A stretch of DNA of 24,627 nucleotides from Rickettsia sp. (GTDB lineage Bacteria; Pseudomonadota; Alphaproteobacteria; Rickettsiales; Rickettsiaceae), in assembly GCA_031254535.1 (NCBI GenBank), contig JAIRUG010000004.1:1-24627 (forward strand), in the 5' to 3' direction. Below the pieces are notes generated by a model. That model had not been told where the DNA came from. It searched no databases and was given only the letters and a program-made list of their open reading frames with translations. A program made the translations under genes and the position numbers. Positions 3,697 through 10,812 of the stretch are shown one piece after another. How positions within the stretch are numbered: position 1 is the stretch's first letter; the number at the start of each line of letters is the position of its first letter.

Positions 3697-3718
3697 TTAT
3701 ACAGAGTACGTGTTTATT

Positions 3719-5290
3719 ATGTCAGTTCTAATTCAAAGACACCTAGATAGTAAATTAATAAAACTATCTTTAGTTTTTGCCTTTATTTATTTCATATTTT
3801 TTAATTCAGCAGTTTCTTGTTACAAATTTAGTTACTACAAGGTAACTTTTTTGAAAGCAATATTGGAGTTGAGTAAAGACTTTCTATATATATACTTTAC
3901 TTGTTTTATCATTTTTTTTGGTTTAACTATCCATAGGCTTGTTTTTATAATTGGGACGATATTTTTGTTTATAACAGGGGCAATTGCCAGCTATTACCTA
4001 TATTGTTTTAGAATTTCTCCTACAAAAGAAATGATGGGTAGTTTTTTTTCCACCGACTTTAATGAAGTATACGAAATAGTTAGTATCAAGCTAATTGTCT
4101 GGTTAGTTTTTAGCTTATTTAGCTGTCTTTATACAATGAAACACTTCTCCATTTTAGATAGTAAACTATTTGTTACAAAATTACTATCAGCAATTTGCCT
4201 TTTAATTACCGTTAATAATATTATCACATCGCAGTTTAAATTGCTAAATAGTTATTTTCCTATTCAATATCTACATAATACATATTTATATTTTTCTAAT
4301 AGTAAATACACCATGCGTAAAGATATAAATAAGAAATTTTCTTTTGCCGATCAATCTGATCAAAATATTATAACTGTACTTGTTATAGGAGAATCAGCAC
4401 GGTTTGATCATTTTGCTATTAATGGTTATTCCAGGGATACTACACCATATTTAAGCACTGTTGAAAATCTTTTTTCGTTTAAAGCACAATCTTCATCTAA
4501 TCATACATATATTGCAGTTCCATCTCTTATGTCCCGCCATCCTGTTAGAGATTTAGGTAAAAGCCTGGAAGACACAAGTTTTTTATCAGTTTTTACCATG
4601 CTTGGTTTTAATACTAATTGGATTGGAACTCAGAGTCTGGTACAATATTTAAAGAGTAAAAACCAATCTACAATTTATGATGAGGTTAAGTTTACCATAA
4701 TACCAGGTGGCTCTGCTTTATTAAAAATGAATGATCATGATGAAAAAATGTTACCTTATATTAAAAATATTGTAAATAACTCTACTACTAAAGAGCTTTT
4801 AGTTATTCATACAAGTGGTAGTCATTGGAAATATTCTGCTAGATATCCTAAAGAATTCCAAAAATTTACTCCTAAGTGTAATTCCACTGCTATGGTAGAT
4901 CAAAGTGTTTGTAAGCCTGAAGAGTTAATTAATGATTACGATAACACTATTTTATATACTGATTTTTTTTTATATAACGTAATAGATTTATTAAAAAATA
5001 ATAACGCAATTCTAATGTATGTTTCTGATCATGCTGAATCTTTGGGAGAACATGGTTATTACGGTCACGGTGGACCGATGATCTCAGAGCAAACTACTGT
5101 ACCTTTCTTAGTTTGGGTATCGGATGAATTTAAAAAAAAACATCCTGACTTGGTGAGTTCTGTAGCTAATCATTTAGGTACTGAAATTAGTCATGACTAT
5201 GTATTTCATTCGATTCTTGATTGTGTTGGCATCCGTTCGACAGTGATTGAAAAAAGTTTAAGCCTATGTGGTAAGAAGTCAAATGGTTAA
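3719..5290 (+). CDS. Lipid A phosphoethanolamine transferase (EptA/sulfatase family)
   Basis: An inner-membrane enzyme of about 523 residues with a periplasmic sulfatase-fold domain, expected to move phosphoethanolamine from phosphatidylethanolamine onto lipid A or another surface glycolipid. Hydrophobic segments fill roughly the first 175 residues. The catalytic domain shows V-I-G-E-S-A-R...N-G-Y-S-R-D-T-T-P-Y-L (the metal/nucleophile motif), H-T-S-G-S-H-W with R-Y-P, Y-D-N-T-I-L-Y-T-D, and the metal-binding S-D-H-A-E-S-L-G-E-H-G. The usual nucleophile Thr of the G-E-T motif is Ser here, the main oddity. A GTG at 3710 would add three residues. The gene overlaps lpxB, consistent with a shared lipid A role. 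Exact substrate is not determinable. Confidence 0.88.
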   Translation: MSVLIQRHLDSKLIKLSLVFAFIYFIFFNSAVSCYKFSYYKVTFLKAILELSKDFLYIYFTCFIIFFGLTIHRLVFIIGTIFLFITGAIASYYLYCFRISPTKEMMGSFFSTDFNEVYEIVSIKLIVWLVFSLFSCLYTMKHFSILDSKLFVTKLLSAICLLITVNNIITSQFKLLNSYFPIQYLHNTYLYFSNSKYTMRKDINKKFSFADQSDQNIITVLVIGESARFDHFAINGYSRDTTPYLSTVENLFSFKAQSSSNHTYIAVPSLMSRHPVRDLGKSLEDTSFLSVFTMLGFNTNWIGTQSLVQYLKSKNQSTIYDEVKFTIIPGGSALLKMNDHDEKMLPYIKNIVNNSTTKELLVIHTSGSHWKYSARYPKEFQKFTPKCNSTAMVDQSVCKPEELINDYDNTILYTDFFLYNVIDLLKNNNAILMYVSDHAESLGEHGYYGHGGPMISEQTTVPFLVWVSDEFKKKHPDLVSSVANHLGTEISHDYVFHSILDCVGIRSTVIEKSLSLCGKKSNG

Positions 5291-6511: not shown

Positions 6512-9500
6512 TTATTGCAATAAGCTCTTAATAGTTTTTTCTTTACTGTTAATATTGTTTAGTTCACTCTTAAGATGTAATTTCTCTGCTTGTTGTTTAG
6601 CTTTATCACAATATTCTAAAGCTTTGTTGAAATCTCCCTTGCTAAAATAAGCATCTGAATAAGTTATATAAAAAAACATTTTTATTAGATTATCAGCCGT
6701 TTGCTCAATTAAATCATTATGCTTATTAAACTCTACTATTACTTTATCAACTTGATTGGTTAAAATAAGTAGTTTCCCATACAATTCTATTGATAGTAAA
6801 AAGTCTCTAATGTTGTGAATTTCATGGAATAGCTTTATTGCTTCTTGAATTGATTTTATAGACGTCTCTATTTCTGGTGTATTTGTTGTATTAATTGTAT
6901 CTGTTGTTTTATTTACACTATTTTTTGCTAAGACAAGATTAGCTTTATGGTACAATAATTTTGCATTTAAACCTTTCATATCATTACTATTTATTGACTC
7001 ACTTACTTTTATATTATTATACTTATTAATTGCTTTATTTATTTTTTTTTCAGCCTTTTGATAATCACCAATTTTACAAAAATATGATGAGTATATATAT
7101 AGAATTTTACATTTTAACATTTCTAAGCCGTCAGTTTCCTGCAAATATTTATTAACCTCATCAACTATCTTTAGAAAATCTTCATATTTCTCTTGATGAA
7201 AATAGACCGAAGAAACCATCAAGTCCATTGCAGCAAGATCTTCATTATATTGATTCTTAAATTTAGTTTTAAATTGCTTACTAGTTTCAATAAGTTGTTG
7301 AAAAGAATTAGTTAGTTTAAACTCCCATTCATTATTTATAAAAAACCGTAATAATGATTCAAACCATCTTAAATTTAAGGTAGAACAAATATTATTTTTA
7401 CTGTCTAGTGATTGACGAAGTTGATTACGTAGCACTGCTTGTACTAAGCGATGGATAGCAATATTATCATTATCATCATAATTAATCATGGAATATTGCC
7501 ATAATAGAGCAATATGCTTATTTAACGTTAATTGTGGGGATGATAAATGCGGATAAGCTGCTTGTAGCCATGTAAGTAATAGTTTATAAGAGATTTTATC
7601 GGGTGCTAGATAAACACATACTGTTAAAAGTTCAATAGCTATTGGTAGTTCATTGTTAATTTTAGTATCTCTAATAATTGCCTCCAAACTAATATTCCAT
7701 GTTATTGCCACTGAGTGGTTATAGGTATTTGTTTCTTCTAAAAAGGTGTTGTCCGTTAGTAATTCTGTTTCATACTTTTTGTAAAGATCTAAATATTCTG
7801 GAATAGTGATATGTTTTTGCTTAATGTAAGCACCAGCTTGTACTAGTGCTAAGGGTAAATATCCTAAGACTTCTACTAATTCTTTTATAGTATCTTGTTC
7901 TCCTACTATATCCCGTTGTATTAAAGTCTTAATTGTTTTGATAGCTTCCTCTTCTGTCATAATATCAATAGGCAATACTGAGAACTTTGTTGGCCAATGA
8001 CGCTGGCGAGTTGTTAAAATCACATATCCACCAGCTTCCGGTAAAAATGGTTCGATTTCACGATAGTTGTTTACGTTGTCATAAACTAAAAGCCATCCTG
8101 GATTGTCAATTAGCCATTGTTTAACATAATCAATAATATTTTCTTTTGTATATATGACTTCTGCGTATCCTAATAACTTAGCGAATTCAATATATTTATT
8201 ACATAACTGATCAATATTCTCTGCAGGAAACCAAACTTTAAGTGTATAAGGATGTTTTGTATGGTTTATATATTGCAAGGCTAATTGTGTTTTACCGATT
8301 CCGCCAAGTCCAGCACATGCACTAATTGCTAAATTATTTATTACTTCTGGCGTATGATTATGATGTAATTTATTATATAAATCACTCAATAGTTTTTCTC
8401 TACCAACAAAAACATGATCTTGTCTGGGGATATTCCAACTAGTCAAATTCTTAGGAAATATTATTGACTCTTGTGGTTTAGGGCAGGGCACTTCTATTTT
8501 TTGACTTTTAACCATTTTTTTAATAGTTGGAATAGATATTAAAAGATAAGCACTACAAATAATCAAAACCAATACACCAACTATTGGTAGGTAAATATTC
8601 TTAGCTTTGCCTTGAATATTTTTATTTGTCAAATAAGATTGAGGAGAAACTGAACCGGAATTATTTGATATAATATTATTATATCTTTCCTTGAAGTTAA
8701 TAATAATGTTCTCTATATTCGTGTTAGGAAAAATTTTTGTGATAATTTCTAAAAAAACAAAATGATATTGTTTGGATGAGGAGAAGTTAATATATTCAAA
8801 ATTAGCTTGTTTAGGTATGAATTTTATATATTCTTCTTCCTGCGGTATAAGGAAAAATACTTTAGATATATCCTGATCATTAGACATAATAACATAATTA
8901 TTACTTTCCTGTTGTTTAGCTATATTAGCTTTATTTACAGCTAAAACATAAATCGTACATTGCCTTAAAGGTTTTTTGCCTTTGTTCTTGTGCTTGCCTA
9001 AAAATATAGGAGTATTATTAAGATATTCTCGTAATTCTACAAAAACTGTTATTCCTATAAGTTGTAAATCACTGCGTATCTTATTGATTATCAAGTTTAA
9101 ATCATTGTTTCCTGATTCATTATTTTTCAGACTTTGCAAAACAATAAAAAATGATATATTATCAGACTTTGTTAATACTAAAATTTCCTTCAAGATTTTT
9201 TTGAATTCTTGTTGAATTAATAAACTTAAATAATAGCTTTGTACTAATTTGTATTTATCAGATTCTTCTATAAAGTTTACAATTCCCTCTCGGGAATTTG
9301 TTCCTATTTTCCGCTTGATATTAGAAAGATGACTTTCAATAGTTCTTGTTTCGATCTGTTTATCCTCTTTTGATAAAAAATTAGCTACTCCTTTTGTATT
9401 TTTCCCATGCATAATGCATGCTATTACATCTATTTCTCTTGATGTAAATCTGATATTGTTAATTGTTAGCAAATGTTTTTGATAAATCTCTTGTAGACAC

Positions 9501-9520
9501 AAGCTCTCTTTATTTTCCAT
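6512..9520 (-). CDS. STAND protein: LuxR HTH, TIR-like region, TM, NB-ARC, TPR
   Basis: A 1002-residue multidomain protein. Residues 24-85 are a LuxR-type DNA-binding helix-turn-helix (F-T-S-R-E-I-D-V-I-A, then T-R-T-I-E-S-H-L-S-N-I-K-R-K-I-G). Residues 118-265 have an alternating strand/helix pattern reminiscent of a TIR/SEFIR domain, including a closing Y-I-N-F-S-S-S-K-Q-Y; this is tentative. Residues 309-331 form one strong hydrophobic segment. Residues 370-700 are NB-ARC: F-V-G-R-E entry motif, P-loop G-L-G-G-I-G-K-T at 404-411, Walker B L-L-V-Y-D-N at 477-482, G-Y-L-P-L-A-L at 553-559 and I-H-R-L-V-Q at 689-694. Residues 745-1000 are helical with TPRs, clearest at 805-836 and 948-981. 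NB-ARC/TPR STAND proteins switch state on ligand binding by the repeats; some bacterial ones are anti-phage. What this one senses or regulates is unknown. It is bracketed by repeat remnants. Confidence 0.88.
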   Translation of the reverse strand: MENKESLCLQEIYQKHLLTINNIRFTSREIDVIACIMHGKNTKGVANFLSKEDKQIETRTIESHLSNIKRKIGTNSREGIVNFIEESDKYKLVQSYYLSLLIQQEFKKILKEILVLTKSDNISFFIVLQSLKNNESGNNDLNLIINKIRSDLQLIGITVFVELREYLNNTPIFLGKHKNKGKKPLRQCTIYVLAVNKANIAKQQESNNYVIMSNDQDISKVFFLIPQEEEYIKFIPKQANFEYINFSSSKQYHFVFLEIITKIFPNTNIENIIINFKERYNNIISNNSGSVSPQSYLTNKNIQGKAKNIYLPIVGVLVLIICSAYLLISIPTIKKMVKSQKIEVPCPKPQESIIFPKNLTSWNIPRQDHVFVGREKLLSDLYNKLHHNHTPEVINNLAISACAGLGGIGKTQLALQYINHTKHPYTLKVWFPAENIDQLCNKYIEFAKLLGYAEVIYTKENIIDYVKQWLIDNPGWLLVYDNVNNYREIEPFLPEAGGYVILTTRQRHWPTKFSVLPIDIMTEEEAIKTIKTLIQRDIVGEQDTIKELVEVLGYLPLALVQAGAYIKQKHITIPEYLDLYKKYETELLTDNTFLEETNTYNHSVAITWNISLEAIIRDTKINNELPIAIELLTVCVYLAPDKISYKLLLTWLQAAYPHLSSPQLTLNKHIALLWQYSMINYDDNDNIAIHRLVQAVLRNQLRQSLDSKNNICSTLNLRWFESLLRFFINNEWEFKLTNSFQQLIETSKQFKTKFKNQYNEDLAAMDLMVSSVYFHQEKYEDFLKIVDEVNKYLQETDGLEMLKCKILYIYSSYFCKIGDYQKAEKKINKAINKYNNIKVSESINSNDMKGLNAKLLYHKANLVLAKNSVNKTTDTINTTNTPEIETSIKSIQEAIKLFHEIHNIRDFLLSIELYGKLLILTNQVDKVIVEFNKHNDLIEQTADNLIKMFFYITYSDAYFSKGDFNKALEYCDKAKQQAEKLHLKSELNNINSKEKTIKSLLQ

Positions 9521-9631
9521 AATATATAAATTATTTAAACTACTATTCCTACTCTTATGAGGATTGTATTTTAAATATAAGACATAATCTGCTTAATTCT
9601 CTGAATTATATCTATGTATTTTTTACTTACG

Positions 9632-9685
9632 TATAATACTTAATATTTTTTAATAATTGAAATAATTTATAATACTTAATATTTT
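9632..9685. repeat. 18-bp direct repeat upstream of the STAND gene
   Basis: TATAATACTTAATATTTT occurs at 9632-9649 and 9668-9685, start to start 36 bases apart. The core AATACTTAATATT is a near-palindrome and occurs once more at 15198-15210, upstream of the histidine kinase. The pair lies about 110-165 bases upstream of the STAND start codon. It could be an operator or just an AT-rich duplication. Confidence 0.6.
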
Positions 9686-9721
9686 AGCAAAAATATATAT
9701 GTTTTAATAAATTCTTCCAGG

Positions 9722-9891
9722 CTAGGAGGTTGTTGGAAATAACTAAAGTAATTACTATATTTTGCTCTTTTTAGTTGTGAATAAACATGATTTTCTTGAA
9801 ATAGGTACACTATCCCTTCAAAAATCATATTTATTCTCGCCGAAAAATAGCTCAAAATATAATTAATTAGTTATCGTAGGTAGCCTCCTAG
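9722..9891. mobile_element. MITE-like remnant with CTAG ends (IS5-like)
   Basis: CTAG at 9722-9725 and at 9888-9891 enclose 162 bases. The two 25-base ends (9722-9746 and 9867-9891) are inverted copies matching at 17 of 25 positions: CTAGGAGG outside and ATAACTAA inside are conserved. A four-base YTAR target duplicated at both ends is typical of IS5-group insertions, as I recall. The interior is AT-rich with no open frame, so this is a non-autonomous element or a deleted IS. Confidence 0.5.
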
Positions 9892-9945
9892 AACATTAAC
9901 GGGTTAGCTATAGCTGGGAAATTAAACTATAGCTTGAATTATTGT

Positions 9946-10155
9946 AAAATAATAATTCACCTTACGCATAACCCCCATGGCAATTTAAAAATTGCAGGAG
10001 AGCACAAGACGTCTATTAGCAAGACCACGCAAGTAGGTTGTGACATCCACATTCATTGGATTGCATCAATGCCACAAAGTGGCTCCTCGCTAATAGCATC
10101 AGGTTGTTTTCCCTATGACTTTTAAATGCCATGCATAAGGTGAAATAATAAATAT
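9946..10155. mobile_element. MITE-like element carrying nested palindromic repeats
   Basis: CACCTTACGCAT at 9958-9969 is matched by inverted ATGCATAAGGTG at 10131-10142 (11 of 12), and the match continues imperfectly outward through A/T bases and inward to CATGG/TGCCATG. The enclosed 185 bases hold decayed copies of the short palindromic family: a B unit at 10010-10050 and an A unit at 10057-10098, joined by ATTCATT as in the cluster before recR. A 63-codon open frame crosses it but is explained by the repeats. Confidence 0.5.
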
Positions 10156-10194
10156 TTAAAAACAAGTTCATTGCAACTTAGTAGAGTATTAATT

Positions 10195-10812
10195 ATGAAA
10201 AATATAGATACTAACGATTTACGTAATATCGTAGGTTCTATTAGTACTAAACTGGATAAAAATGATATAGCAGCTGAAATACATTACAGGTTAAAAGATC
10301 CTTGTTCTATTTTAAAGAAGATATTAAGAAAAACTATCGCTTTGAAAGAATTAACGGATATAATTGCTTTTAGAGTTATAGTTGATAAAAAAGAAGACTG
10401 TTATAAAGTGTTGGATATTATTTACAGTCTTTATTCTGTTAATATCAACAAGTCTAAAAACTATATTGCTAATCCTAAGGATAATGGCTACCGTTCTTTA
10501 CATGTCATAATTGTAGTTGGTATCTATGAACGTAATATAGAAATACAAATACGGAGCAGGAAGATGCATAATATCGCAGAATCTGGCACAGCAAACCATG
10601 ATAAATATAAAAAAACTCAGGAAATAAAGCTAAGAAAGTTACTCTCTAAAGAGAAGATTAATACAGCTGCTATTAATACTGAAATCAATAACGCATATAA
10701 TATTTTTAGCCAGTTTAATTGGACTATAGCAGAACTCATTGCTTACGAGCAGGCAATTGAAAATCTTTGTTGTAATTTGTACGATGTACAATTAAATAAA
10801 GTTATTGAGTAA
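10195..10812 (+). CDS. Stand-alone RelA/SpoT synthetase-domain protein
   Basis: A 205-residue protein made essentially of a (p)ppGpp synthetase domain, which would transfer pyrophosphate from ATP to GDP/GTP. Visible motifs are Y-R-L-K-D-P-C-S-I at 31-39 (the R-x-K-x-x-x-S-I nucleotide-binding motif), L-T-D-I-I-A-F-R-V-I-V-D at 53-64, P-K-D-N-G-Y-R-S-L-H at 94-103, E-I-Q-I-R-S at 116-121 and H-N-I-A-E-S-G-T-A-N-H at 125-135. The N-terminal HD hydrolase and C-terminal TGS/ACT parts of full RelA/SpoT are absent. It could be a small alarmone synthetase or the synthetase half of a split spoT. A TTG at 10171 would extend it by eight residues; ATG 10195 with AGAG just upstream is preferred. It is separated from the STAND gene by the two MITE-like elements. 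Confidence 0.85.
   Translation: MKNIDTNDLRNIVGSISTKLDKNDIAAEIHYRLKDPCSILKKILRKTIALKELTDIIAFRVIVDKKEDCYKVLDIIYSLYSVNINKSKNYIANPKDNGYRSLHVIIVVGIYERNIEIQIRSRKMHNIAESGTANHDKYKKTQEIKLRKLLSKEKINTAAINTEINNAYNIFSQFNWTIAELIAYEQAIENLCCNLYDVQLNKVIE

What the first reader, a model, noticed from the sequence alone, without database searches (positions are those of the whole stretch)
6512..9520. DNA-binding STAND protein: LuxR HTH fused to NB-ARC and TPR
One 1002-residue protein carries an N-terminal LuxR-type HTH, a central region, a membrane segment, a complete NB-ARC ATPase (P-loop, Walker B, G-L-P-L-A-L and H-R-L-V-Q motifs all visible) and a TPR tail. MalT-type STAND regulators have the HTH at the C-terminus and no membrane segment; here the order is reversed and NB-ARC is NLR-like. 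It could be a sensor that changes transcription on ligand or phage/host signal, which would be a new arrangement for an intracellular bacterium. The function is inference; the domain order is seen.
Basis: partly seen in the sequence, partly recalled or inferred. Interest (0 to 1): 0.78.

Follow-up and report, generated by a model that had tools for sequence, protein, structure and literature searches.

The report
Membrane-anchored LuxR-STAND gene regulator
A bacterium related to insect symbionts carries a large gene switch whose DNA-binding end should sit inside the cell while its NLR-like, energy-using sensor follows a membrane anchor and probably faces outward, and it is paired with an enzyme that makes the bacterial stress signal (p)ppGpp.

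Summary
A 1002-aa ORF (window 9520..6512, minus strand) encodes LuxR HTH, an orphan central region, one hydrophobic (TM) segment, NB-ARC/DUF7779 and a TPR-like tail. It is not a one-off: a TM lies 17-35 residues before NB-ARC in 21 of 21 fetched Rickettsiales rows and before NB-ARC in 22 of 22 further proteins, 20 of them from outside the order. Flank charges across 25 proteins favour HTH inside, NB-ARC outside (p=0.0002), but the window protein is one of two exceptions. dN/dS is 0.21-0.49 in six pairs. Nine of nine readable orthologues sit head-to-head with a (p)ppGpp-synthetase gene, sharing a conserved block that is absent at three synthetase relatives without the regulator. In two genomes the pair lies among conjugation genes. 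Thirteen of 14 family-positive class genomes encode an ATP/ADP translocase, against 31 of 371 others, which lifestyle could explain. Best reading: a ToxR/CadC-like regulator with a STAND sensor outside the inner membrane, controlling itself and the synthetase. Topology, DNA target and ligand are inferred.

The parts
6512..9520 (-). LuxR HTH - central region - TM - NB-ARC/DUF7779 - TPR-like tail protein, 1002 aa
9278..9448 (-). LuxR/GerE HTH, residues 25-81
   Evidence: E 1.3e-8; AF2 block pLDDT 62-92 over residues 21-90
8621..9265 (-). central region, residues 86-300, family-specific, no convincing Pfam or PDB match
8531..8587 (-). hydrophobic, presumed transmembrane segment, residues 312-330
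7721..8398 (-). NB-ARC ATPase domain, residues 375-600
8288..8311 (-). P-loop GLGGIGKT, residues 404-411
7412..7645 (-). DUF7779 (winged-helix position, recalled), residues 626-703
6515..7390 (-). TPR-like helical tail, residues 711-1002
9620..9641 (-). conserved intergenic block, candidate operator or promoter of the divergent pair
10171..10812 (+). divergent synthetase-only RSH, (p)ppGpp synthetase; an ATG lies at 10195
   Evidence: PF04607, E 1.8e-34; conserved neighbour

Best explanation
A membrane-anchored one-component transcription regulator. The LuxR HTH is in the cytoplasm, one TM segment follows, and the NB-ARC/TPR part lies on the far side of the inner membrane. Ligand or nucleotide binding there would drive STAND oligomerisation, bring HTHs together and change transcription from the shared intergenic region, controlling the regulator itself and the divergent (p)ppGpp synthetase. 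Shown: domains, a conserved hydrophobic segment, intact ATP motifs, purifying selection, the linked synthetase gene and the co-conserved block. Inferred: NB-ARC outside, oligomerisation, DNA target, regulation of the synthetase, ligand. A periplasmic NB-ARC needs ATP there; these genomes encode Tlc translocases, which take up host ATP across the inner membrane (recalled).
For: HTH and NB-ARC over cut-off. A hydrophobic stretch 17-35 residues before NB-ARC in 21 of 21 fetched Rickettsiales HTH rows and before NB-ARC in 22 of 22 further proteins. Net flank charge +2.44 on the N side, +0.56 on the C side; N higher in 21 of 25, lower in 2; p=0.0002, rows not independent. dN/dS 0.21-0.49 over the whole gene in six pairs with dS 0.17 or more; HTH, NB-ARC and DUF7779 lower than central region and tail in each pair. 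Divergent synthetase beside the gene in 9 of the 9 genomes whose HTH end and upstream DNA were read. Conserved block at 0 mismatches only at this locus, in 7 of 16 same-genus genomes, also in G069 with 1 mismatch and G258; absent at three synthetase relatives without the regulator beside them. In G069 and G258 an HD-domain gene lies on the other side. Tlc in 13 of 14 family-positive class genomes against 31 of 371 others.
Against: No experiment. The window protein is one of the two of 25 whose flank charges point the other way (N side 3 K/R and 0 acidic, C side 5 K/R and 1 acidic). A search for STAND, NTPase, periplasm and NB-ARC together found no paper, so there is no precedent to lean on. 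In the NB-ARC tree this clade groups with proteins that lack export signals, not with the signal-peptide clade. The Tlc link may only reflect intracellular life; two genomes with signal-peptide-like NB-ARC proteins (G042, G197) are not among the Tlc-positive. Synthetase orthologues at 82-86% exist without the regulator beside them. The block may be a promoter, not an operator; promoter-like matches in the region are no more than in shuffles (7 found, 6.7 expected).
Confidence: 0.5

Rival explanations
1. A membrane-attached regulator whose NB-ARC and TPR stay in the cytoplasm (the hydrophobic helix is buried or lies in the membrane without crossing it), working like AfsR near the membrane.
For: NB-ARC proteins normally act in the cytosol (recalled). 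In the tree this NB-ARC clusters with unexported ones. The window protein's flank charges point against N-inside.
Against: The segment is strongly hydrophobic and kept in every HTH plus NB-ARC protein checked, although the TM/linker stretch evolves fast; the family's charge bias favours crossing with the HTH inside.
Confidence: 0.25
2. A host-directed effector: the protein is exported, acts in the host cell, and the HTH is a relic.
For: Rickettsiaceae carry NB-ARC proteins with N-terminal signal-peptide-like segments; some Orientia TPR proteins have predicted Sec signals and are called putative effectors (PMC10732058, passages).
Against: The HTH is among the most constrained parts (dN/dS 0.06-0.31 in six pairs) and its motif is conserved across the family; the hydrophobic segment is internal, not N-terminal; a conserved block goes with the gene.
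Confidence: 0.1
3. A regulator that is cargo of a mobile (RAGE-type) element, serves the element, and decays in chromosomes.
For: In G069 and G258 the pair lies among MobA/TraA-like, TraD, HD, histidine kinase and DNA methyltransferase genes (Pfam of the G069 copy). Of 16 same-genus genomes 5 have an intact copy and 3 a broken or cut one.
Against: In the window no transfer genes were recognised, and none was picked out by eye beside the other same-genus copies (not searched by profile); intact copies are under purifying selection.
Confidence: 0.1
4. An anti-phage, NLR-like defence protein.
For: NB-ARC/TPR STAND architecture resembles bacterial NLRs (recalled).
Against: No PADLOC match for the protein; an HTH in place of an effector domain. 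Its neighbours were not scanned with PADLOC.
Confidence: 0.05

Closest known systems
AfsR/SARP regulators
   Same: DNA-binding domain first, then NB-ARC and TPR (recalled); AfsR is the best PDB sequence hit of the protein, over 371-565
   Different: AfsR has an OmpR-type winged helix plus BTAD and no TM (recalled); here LuxR HTH, an orphan region and a TM
MalT / LAL STAND regulators
   Same: STAND ATPase, helical repeats, LuxR HTH (recalled)
   Different: HTH at the other end, no TM (recalled)
ToxR/CadC transmembrane one-component regulators
   Same: N-terminal DNA-binding domain, one TM, C-terminal sensor (recalled)
   Different: LuxR HTH rather than winged helix; the sensor part is an NB-ARC/TPR STAND module
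FxSxx-COOH system TPR protein (FxsT, NF040586)
   Same: NB-ARC-DUF7779 core, E 2.1e-61
   Different: 208.5 bits against a cut-off of 300; the match covers only residues 364-705
HTH/TPR proteins of Ca. Megaera polyxenophila plasmids (WPX99664, WPX99920)
   Same: HTH module, TM, NB-ARC in that order
   Different: about 24% identity; annotated only as HTH and/or TPR proteins, the first a 628-residue frame followed by separate TPR ORFs; no synthetase in the annotated stretches

Membership tests
NB-ARC STAND ATPases | NB-ARC profile over cut-off with P-loop and Walker B | tested here: met
NB-ARC STAND ATPases | ATP binding/hydrolysis and oligomerisation | not testable with these tools
   needs protein
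LuxR/FixJ DNA-binding regulators | GerE HTH over cut-off | tested here: met
   AF2 HTH modelled well; Foldseek to VqmA/CviR only E 0.02-0.03
MalT/LAL | HTH at the C-terminus | tested here: not met
   HTH at 25-81
AfsR/SARP | OmpR-type winged helix plus BTAD before NB-ARC | tested here: not met
   GerE instead; Trans_reg_C only E 0.12; no BTAD match at E<=1
ToxR/CadC-type regulators | single TM between DNA-binding and sensor parts | tested here: met
   by hydropathy
ToxR/CadC-type regulators | OmpR-type winged helix | tested here: not met
ToxR/CadC-type regulators | sensor in the periplasm | tested here: inconclusive
   family charge bias supports it, the window protein goes against it
FxsT (NF040586) | curated score cut-off | tested here: not met
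   208.5 against 300 bits
known anti-phage systems | PADLOC model match | tested here: not met
   no family at E<=1
RAGE cargo | located among RAGE transfer genes | tested here: inconclusive
   conjugation genes beside the pair in G069/G258; none recognised in the window

The most novel reading that the evidence does not exclude
A class of transmembrane STAND receptors whose NB-ARC ATPase works outside the inner membrane on host-derived ATP (possible only where host ATP reaches the periplasm, as in Tlc-bearing intracellular bacteria), so that the host's energy state or a host ligand is read outside and passed to a cytoplasmic LuxR HTH, which here sets (p)ppGpp synthesis.
Probability: 0.3. Interest if true: 0.93.

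Novelty: new variant of a known kind. Interest (0 to 1): 0.72.

Why it matters
If the topology is right, an NLR-like STAND switch is used as an outward-facing receptor, in bacteria where host ATP may make that possible. It gives a concrete candidate for how host-restricted bacteria couple the host's state to the stringent response. It also points to a family spread over several alphaproteobacterial lineages (up to 6 matches in one genome) for which the paper searches made here found no functional description, and each step can be tested in a laboratory strain.

Tried and rejected
Central region: 13 members against Pfam at E<=10 gave 16 families, each matching one member only, best E 0.014; a PDB profile search gave three hits at E 1.1-1.2; comparison with the window's own response regulator gave nothing. 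My thought that it is TIR-like rests on pattern memory and found no support. AlphaFold: both models poor overall (mean pLDDT 47.0 and 48.4), with only 5 and 4 close sequences in the alignments; the NB-ARC was not modelled. Viral contigs: 20 pattern matches, none a relative. Cysteine content by domain did not discriminate. The first flank-charge script picked wrong segments in several rows (net charge N higher in 15, lower in 6 of 24, p=0.13); it was redone with TM ranges set by hand and one more protein. A synthetase beside the paralogues of other genera: no match in those fetched loci. Promoter scan of 9400-10300: no more than shuffles. The near-identical pair G069/G258 gave dN/dS 2.08 on dS 0.003, and the TM/linker stretch 2.03 in own/G004 on dS 0.07; neither is read as selection.

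Paper searches (open-licence PMC only): LuxR+NB-ARC+tetratricopeptide+Rickettsia 0 papers; NB-ARC+Rickettsiales 4; NB-ARC+Rickettsia+signal peptide 1, on placozoans; RAGE with SpoT/TPR/cargo terms, 3 of 4, 8; one-component/LuxR/STAND/NB-ARC/transmembrane, 4 of 5 terms, 21; Rickettsia+ppGpp+SpoT+transcriptional regulator 21; STAND+NTPase+periplasm+NB-ARC 0; bacterial NLR and related terms, 5 of 6, 21; Tisiphia+NB-ARC 0; NB-ARC/endosymbiont/other terms, 3 of 6, 83 of which 20 listed. Passages only were seen of PMC10732058, PMC9098888, PMC11077975 and PMC10438800; of the rest only the listings.

Full report
What is there. The ORF at 6512-9520 is on the minus strand and encodes 1002 residues. Pfam finds GerE at 25-81, NB-ARC at 375-600 and DUF7779 at 626-703, all over cut-off; TPR models reach only sub-threshold scores around 951-982. 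One hydrophobic segment lies at 312-330. NCBIfam places the NB-ARC-DUF7779 core near FxsT (E 2.1e-61, below cut-off). The best PDB hit of the sequence is AfsR (E 8.9e-7); a profile of ten related NB-ARC domains hits Roq1 first, then NRC1, AfsR, other plant NLRs and Apaf-1. AlphaFold models only the HTH and the C-terminal repeats well; the first Foldseek hit of the full-length model is a STAND-TPR protein, with a poor overall fit.

Where it lies. The window is contig 87 of a 725-kb assembly, 68% complete, with one copy of the gene. Named close relatives are Rickettsia endosymbionts of two beetles and two biting midges; PMC9098888 (passages) lists the two beetle symbionts, Pante1 and Lappe4, in the Torix group it proposes as Ca. 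Tisiphia. Many neighbours read as housekeeping genes (dnaN, dapD, dapB, recR, gyrA, tkt, lpxB; names recalled from the sequences; six other ORFs were checked by Pfam).

A family. A search with the protein in 58 relatives gave matches in 22, some of them only to the NB-ARC or the tail. A profile of the N-terminal module (A1, 15 rows) matched 29 of 262 genomes of the order at E<=1e-8, 21 of them at E<=1e-20, and 14 of 385 genomes of the class at E<=1e-20, all 2.6 Mb or smaller, three with 6 matches. Architectures: HTH-central-TM-NB-ARC-tail in many; variants without a recognised NB-ARC, namely L043 (about 50% identical in the shared parts but without residues 362-756), L025, L027, L030, L034, L035, L037 and L040; and one sodium-solute-symporter-like protein (PF00474) with the HTH module at its C-terminus, L029. 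In 20 regions from outside the order and two Megaera plasmid regions, 22 proteins carry both HTH module and NB-ARC; all 22 have a hydrophobic segment before NB-ARC and a P-loop, and two (L148, L149) show a second hydrophobic stretch elsewhere. Three more ORFs there have the HTH without NB-ARC: one of 551 aa with a TM, and two of 136 and 107 aa without.

Tree. Among 48 NB-ARC domains the 16 HTH-linked rows fall in two places (3 changes on the tree, at least 2 forced), 15 of 16 signal-peptide rows form one group (98/92), and the window's clade groups with one unexported protein and L063 (100/99); the root is unknown. This fits more than one fusion, a swap of the NB-ARC, or losses.

Topology. Of the fetched NB-ARC rows in the order, 64 distinct ones whose NB-ARC start was matched were scanned (duplicates and rows without that start were dropped). 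21 carry the HTH in frame and all 21 have a hydrophobic stretch 17-35 residues before NB-ARC. 17 others have one 6-21 residues before NB-ARC, which I read by eye as signal peptides (some sit in stop-to-stop frames with extra sequence in front). One, L063, is a split HTH case with a TM. The remaining 25, presumed Wolbachia and others, have none near, though two of them start too close to the NB-ARC to tell. Flank charges over 25 HTH-family proteins: net +2.44 on the N side, +0.56 on the C side, N higher in 21, lower in 2, tied in 2, Wilcoxon p=0.0002; without the window's own clade, 20 proteins, 18 higher, 1 lower, p=0.0005. The rows are related, so the p-values are optimistic. The two that go the other way are the window protein and L060. 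A cytoplasmic DNA-binding end plus one crossing puts NB-ARC outside; the tree, in which this NB-ARC does not join the signal-peptide group, gives no support for that.

The synthetase link. Of the window's 19 genes tested, the synthetase-only RSH (PF04607 E 1.8e-34) is the one found beside every orthologue whose HTH end could be read, divergently: own, G002, G004, G008 (beside the HTH-end fragment), G013, G014, G015, G069 and G258, nine of nine; G012 is cut by a contig end. Other neighbours differ between many of these loci. The intergenic alignment of seven same-genus genomes shows one strongly conserved block. In 16 same-genus genomes the 22-base pattern has 0 mismatches only at this locus, in 7 genomes; the 11 other matches have 3 mismatches, and the reversed-pattern control gave 6 matches in 5 genomes. 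The block is in G069 with 1 mismatch and in G258, and is missing (best 6-7 mismatches of 21) from the loci of three synthetase relatives (76-86% identical) without the regulator beside them, in G005, G006 and G012. Same-genus genomes carry 2-6 such synthetase matches each. In G069 and G258 the pair sits among MobA/TraA-like, TraD, HD, histidine kinase and DNA methyltransferase genes (ORFs; Pfam on the G069 copy), the cargo type described for RAGE in PMC10732058 (passages; its main text has no 'NB-ARC' or 'helix-turn-helix').

Selection. dN/dS over the whole gene was 0.26, 0.29, 0.39, 0.33, 0.21 and 0.49 for own/G013, own/G014, own/G004, own/G069, G013/G014 and G004/G069; near-identical pairs gave 0.10 (G002/G014, dS 0.008) and 2.08 (G069/G258, dS 0.003). 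Of 16 same-genus genomes, five carry an intact orthologue (G000, G002, G004, G013, G014); G008 has it in two distant pieces with a changed P-loop glycine, G015 has a stop, G012 is cut by the contig end, and G006 has a short remnant.

Host ATP idea. A periplasmic ATPase needs ATP outside. Tlc (PF03219) occurs three times in the own genome and in 0 of 14 control genomes. In the class sample 44 of 385 genomes have Tlc, including 13 of the 14 with the family; the exception, G574, is 76% complete. A smaller check gave 12 of 13 family-positive genomes against 3 of 13 negatives that I picked from the listing. In the order 21 of 21 family-positive genomes have Tlc against 75 of 241 others, but 20 of these 21 are of the window's own family, in which every listed genome has Tlc. 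Fisher p-values of 1.3e-12 (class) and 1.5e-10 (order) ignore phylogeny and lifestyle. G042 and G197 have signal-peptide-like NB-ARC proteins and are not among the Tlc-positive.

Verdict. A real, conserved, membrane-anchored LuxR-STAND regulator family; the mechanism with NB-ARC outside and the synthetase as target is the best-supported reading, not a demonstrated one.

Noticed in passing
L033, L042, L108-L110, L113-L115, L120-L127: 17 NB-ARC proteins (mostly 750-880-residue frames) whose N-terminal part looks like a Sec signal peptide directly before NB-ARC; a P-loop pattern is matched in 14 of 17. Many more NB-ARC frames of about 750 residues are listed in Rickettsiaceae genomes but their N-termini were not read.
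   Followed up: partly
L029:913-3840 (-): Sodium-solute-symporter-like protein (PF00474) in one frame with the HTH module at its C-terminus; the next ORF also starts like a symporter.
   Followed up: no
L043:4193-6025 (-): Paralogue about 50% identical in the shared parts but lacking the NB-ARC block (residues 362-756), a natural NB-ARC-less variant.
   Followed up: partly
window 9950-10150: Stretch of the intergenic region with no counterpart in the other six same-genus loci aligned; its ends look like inverted repeats by eye, MITE-like (sequence).
   Followed up: no
L048 and L049: The G008 orthologue is in two distant pieces; a copy of a 225-aa recombinase-like ORF lies at each break.
   Followed up: no
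window 3710-5290: Sulfatase/EptA-like phosphoethanolamine-transferase gene (PF00884, PF08019) just before an lpxB-like gene (name recalled).
   Followed up: no
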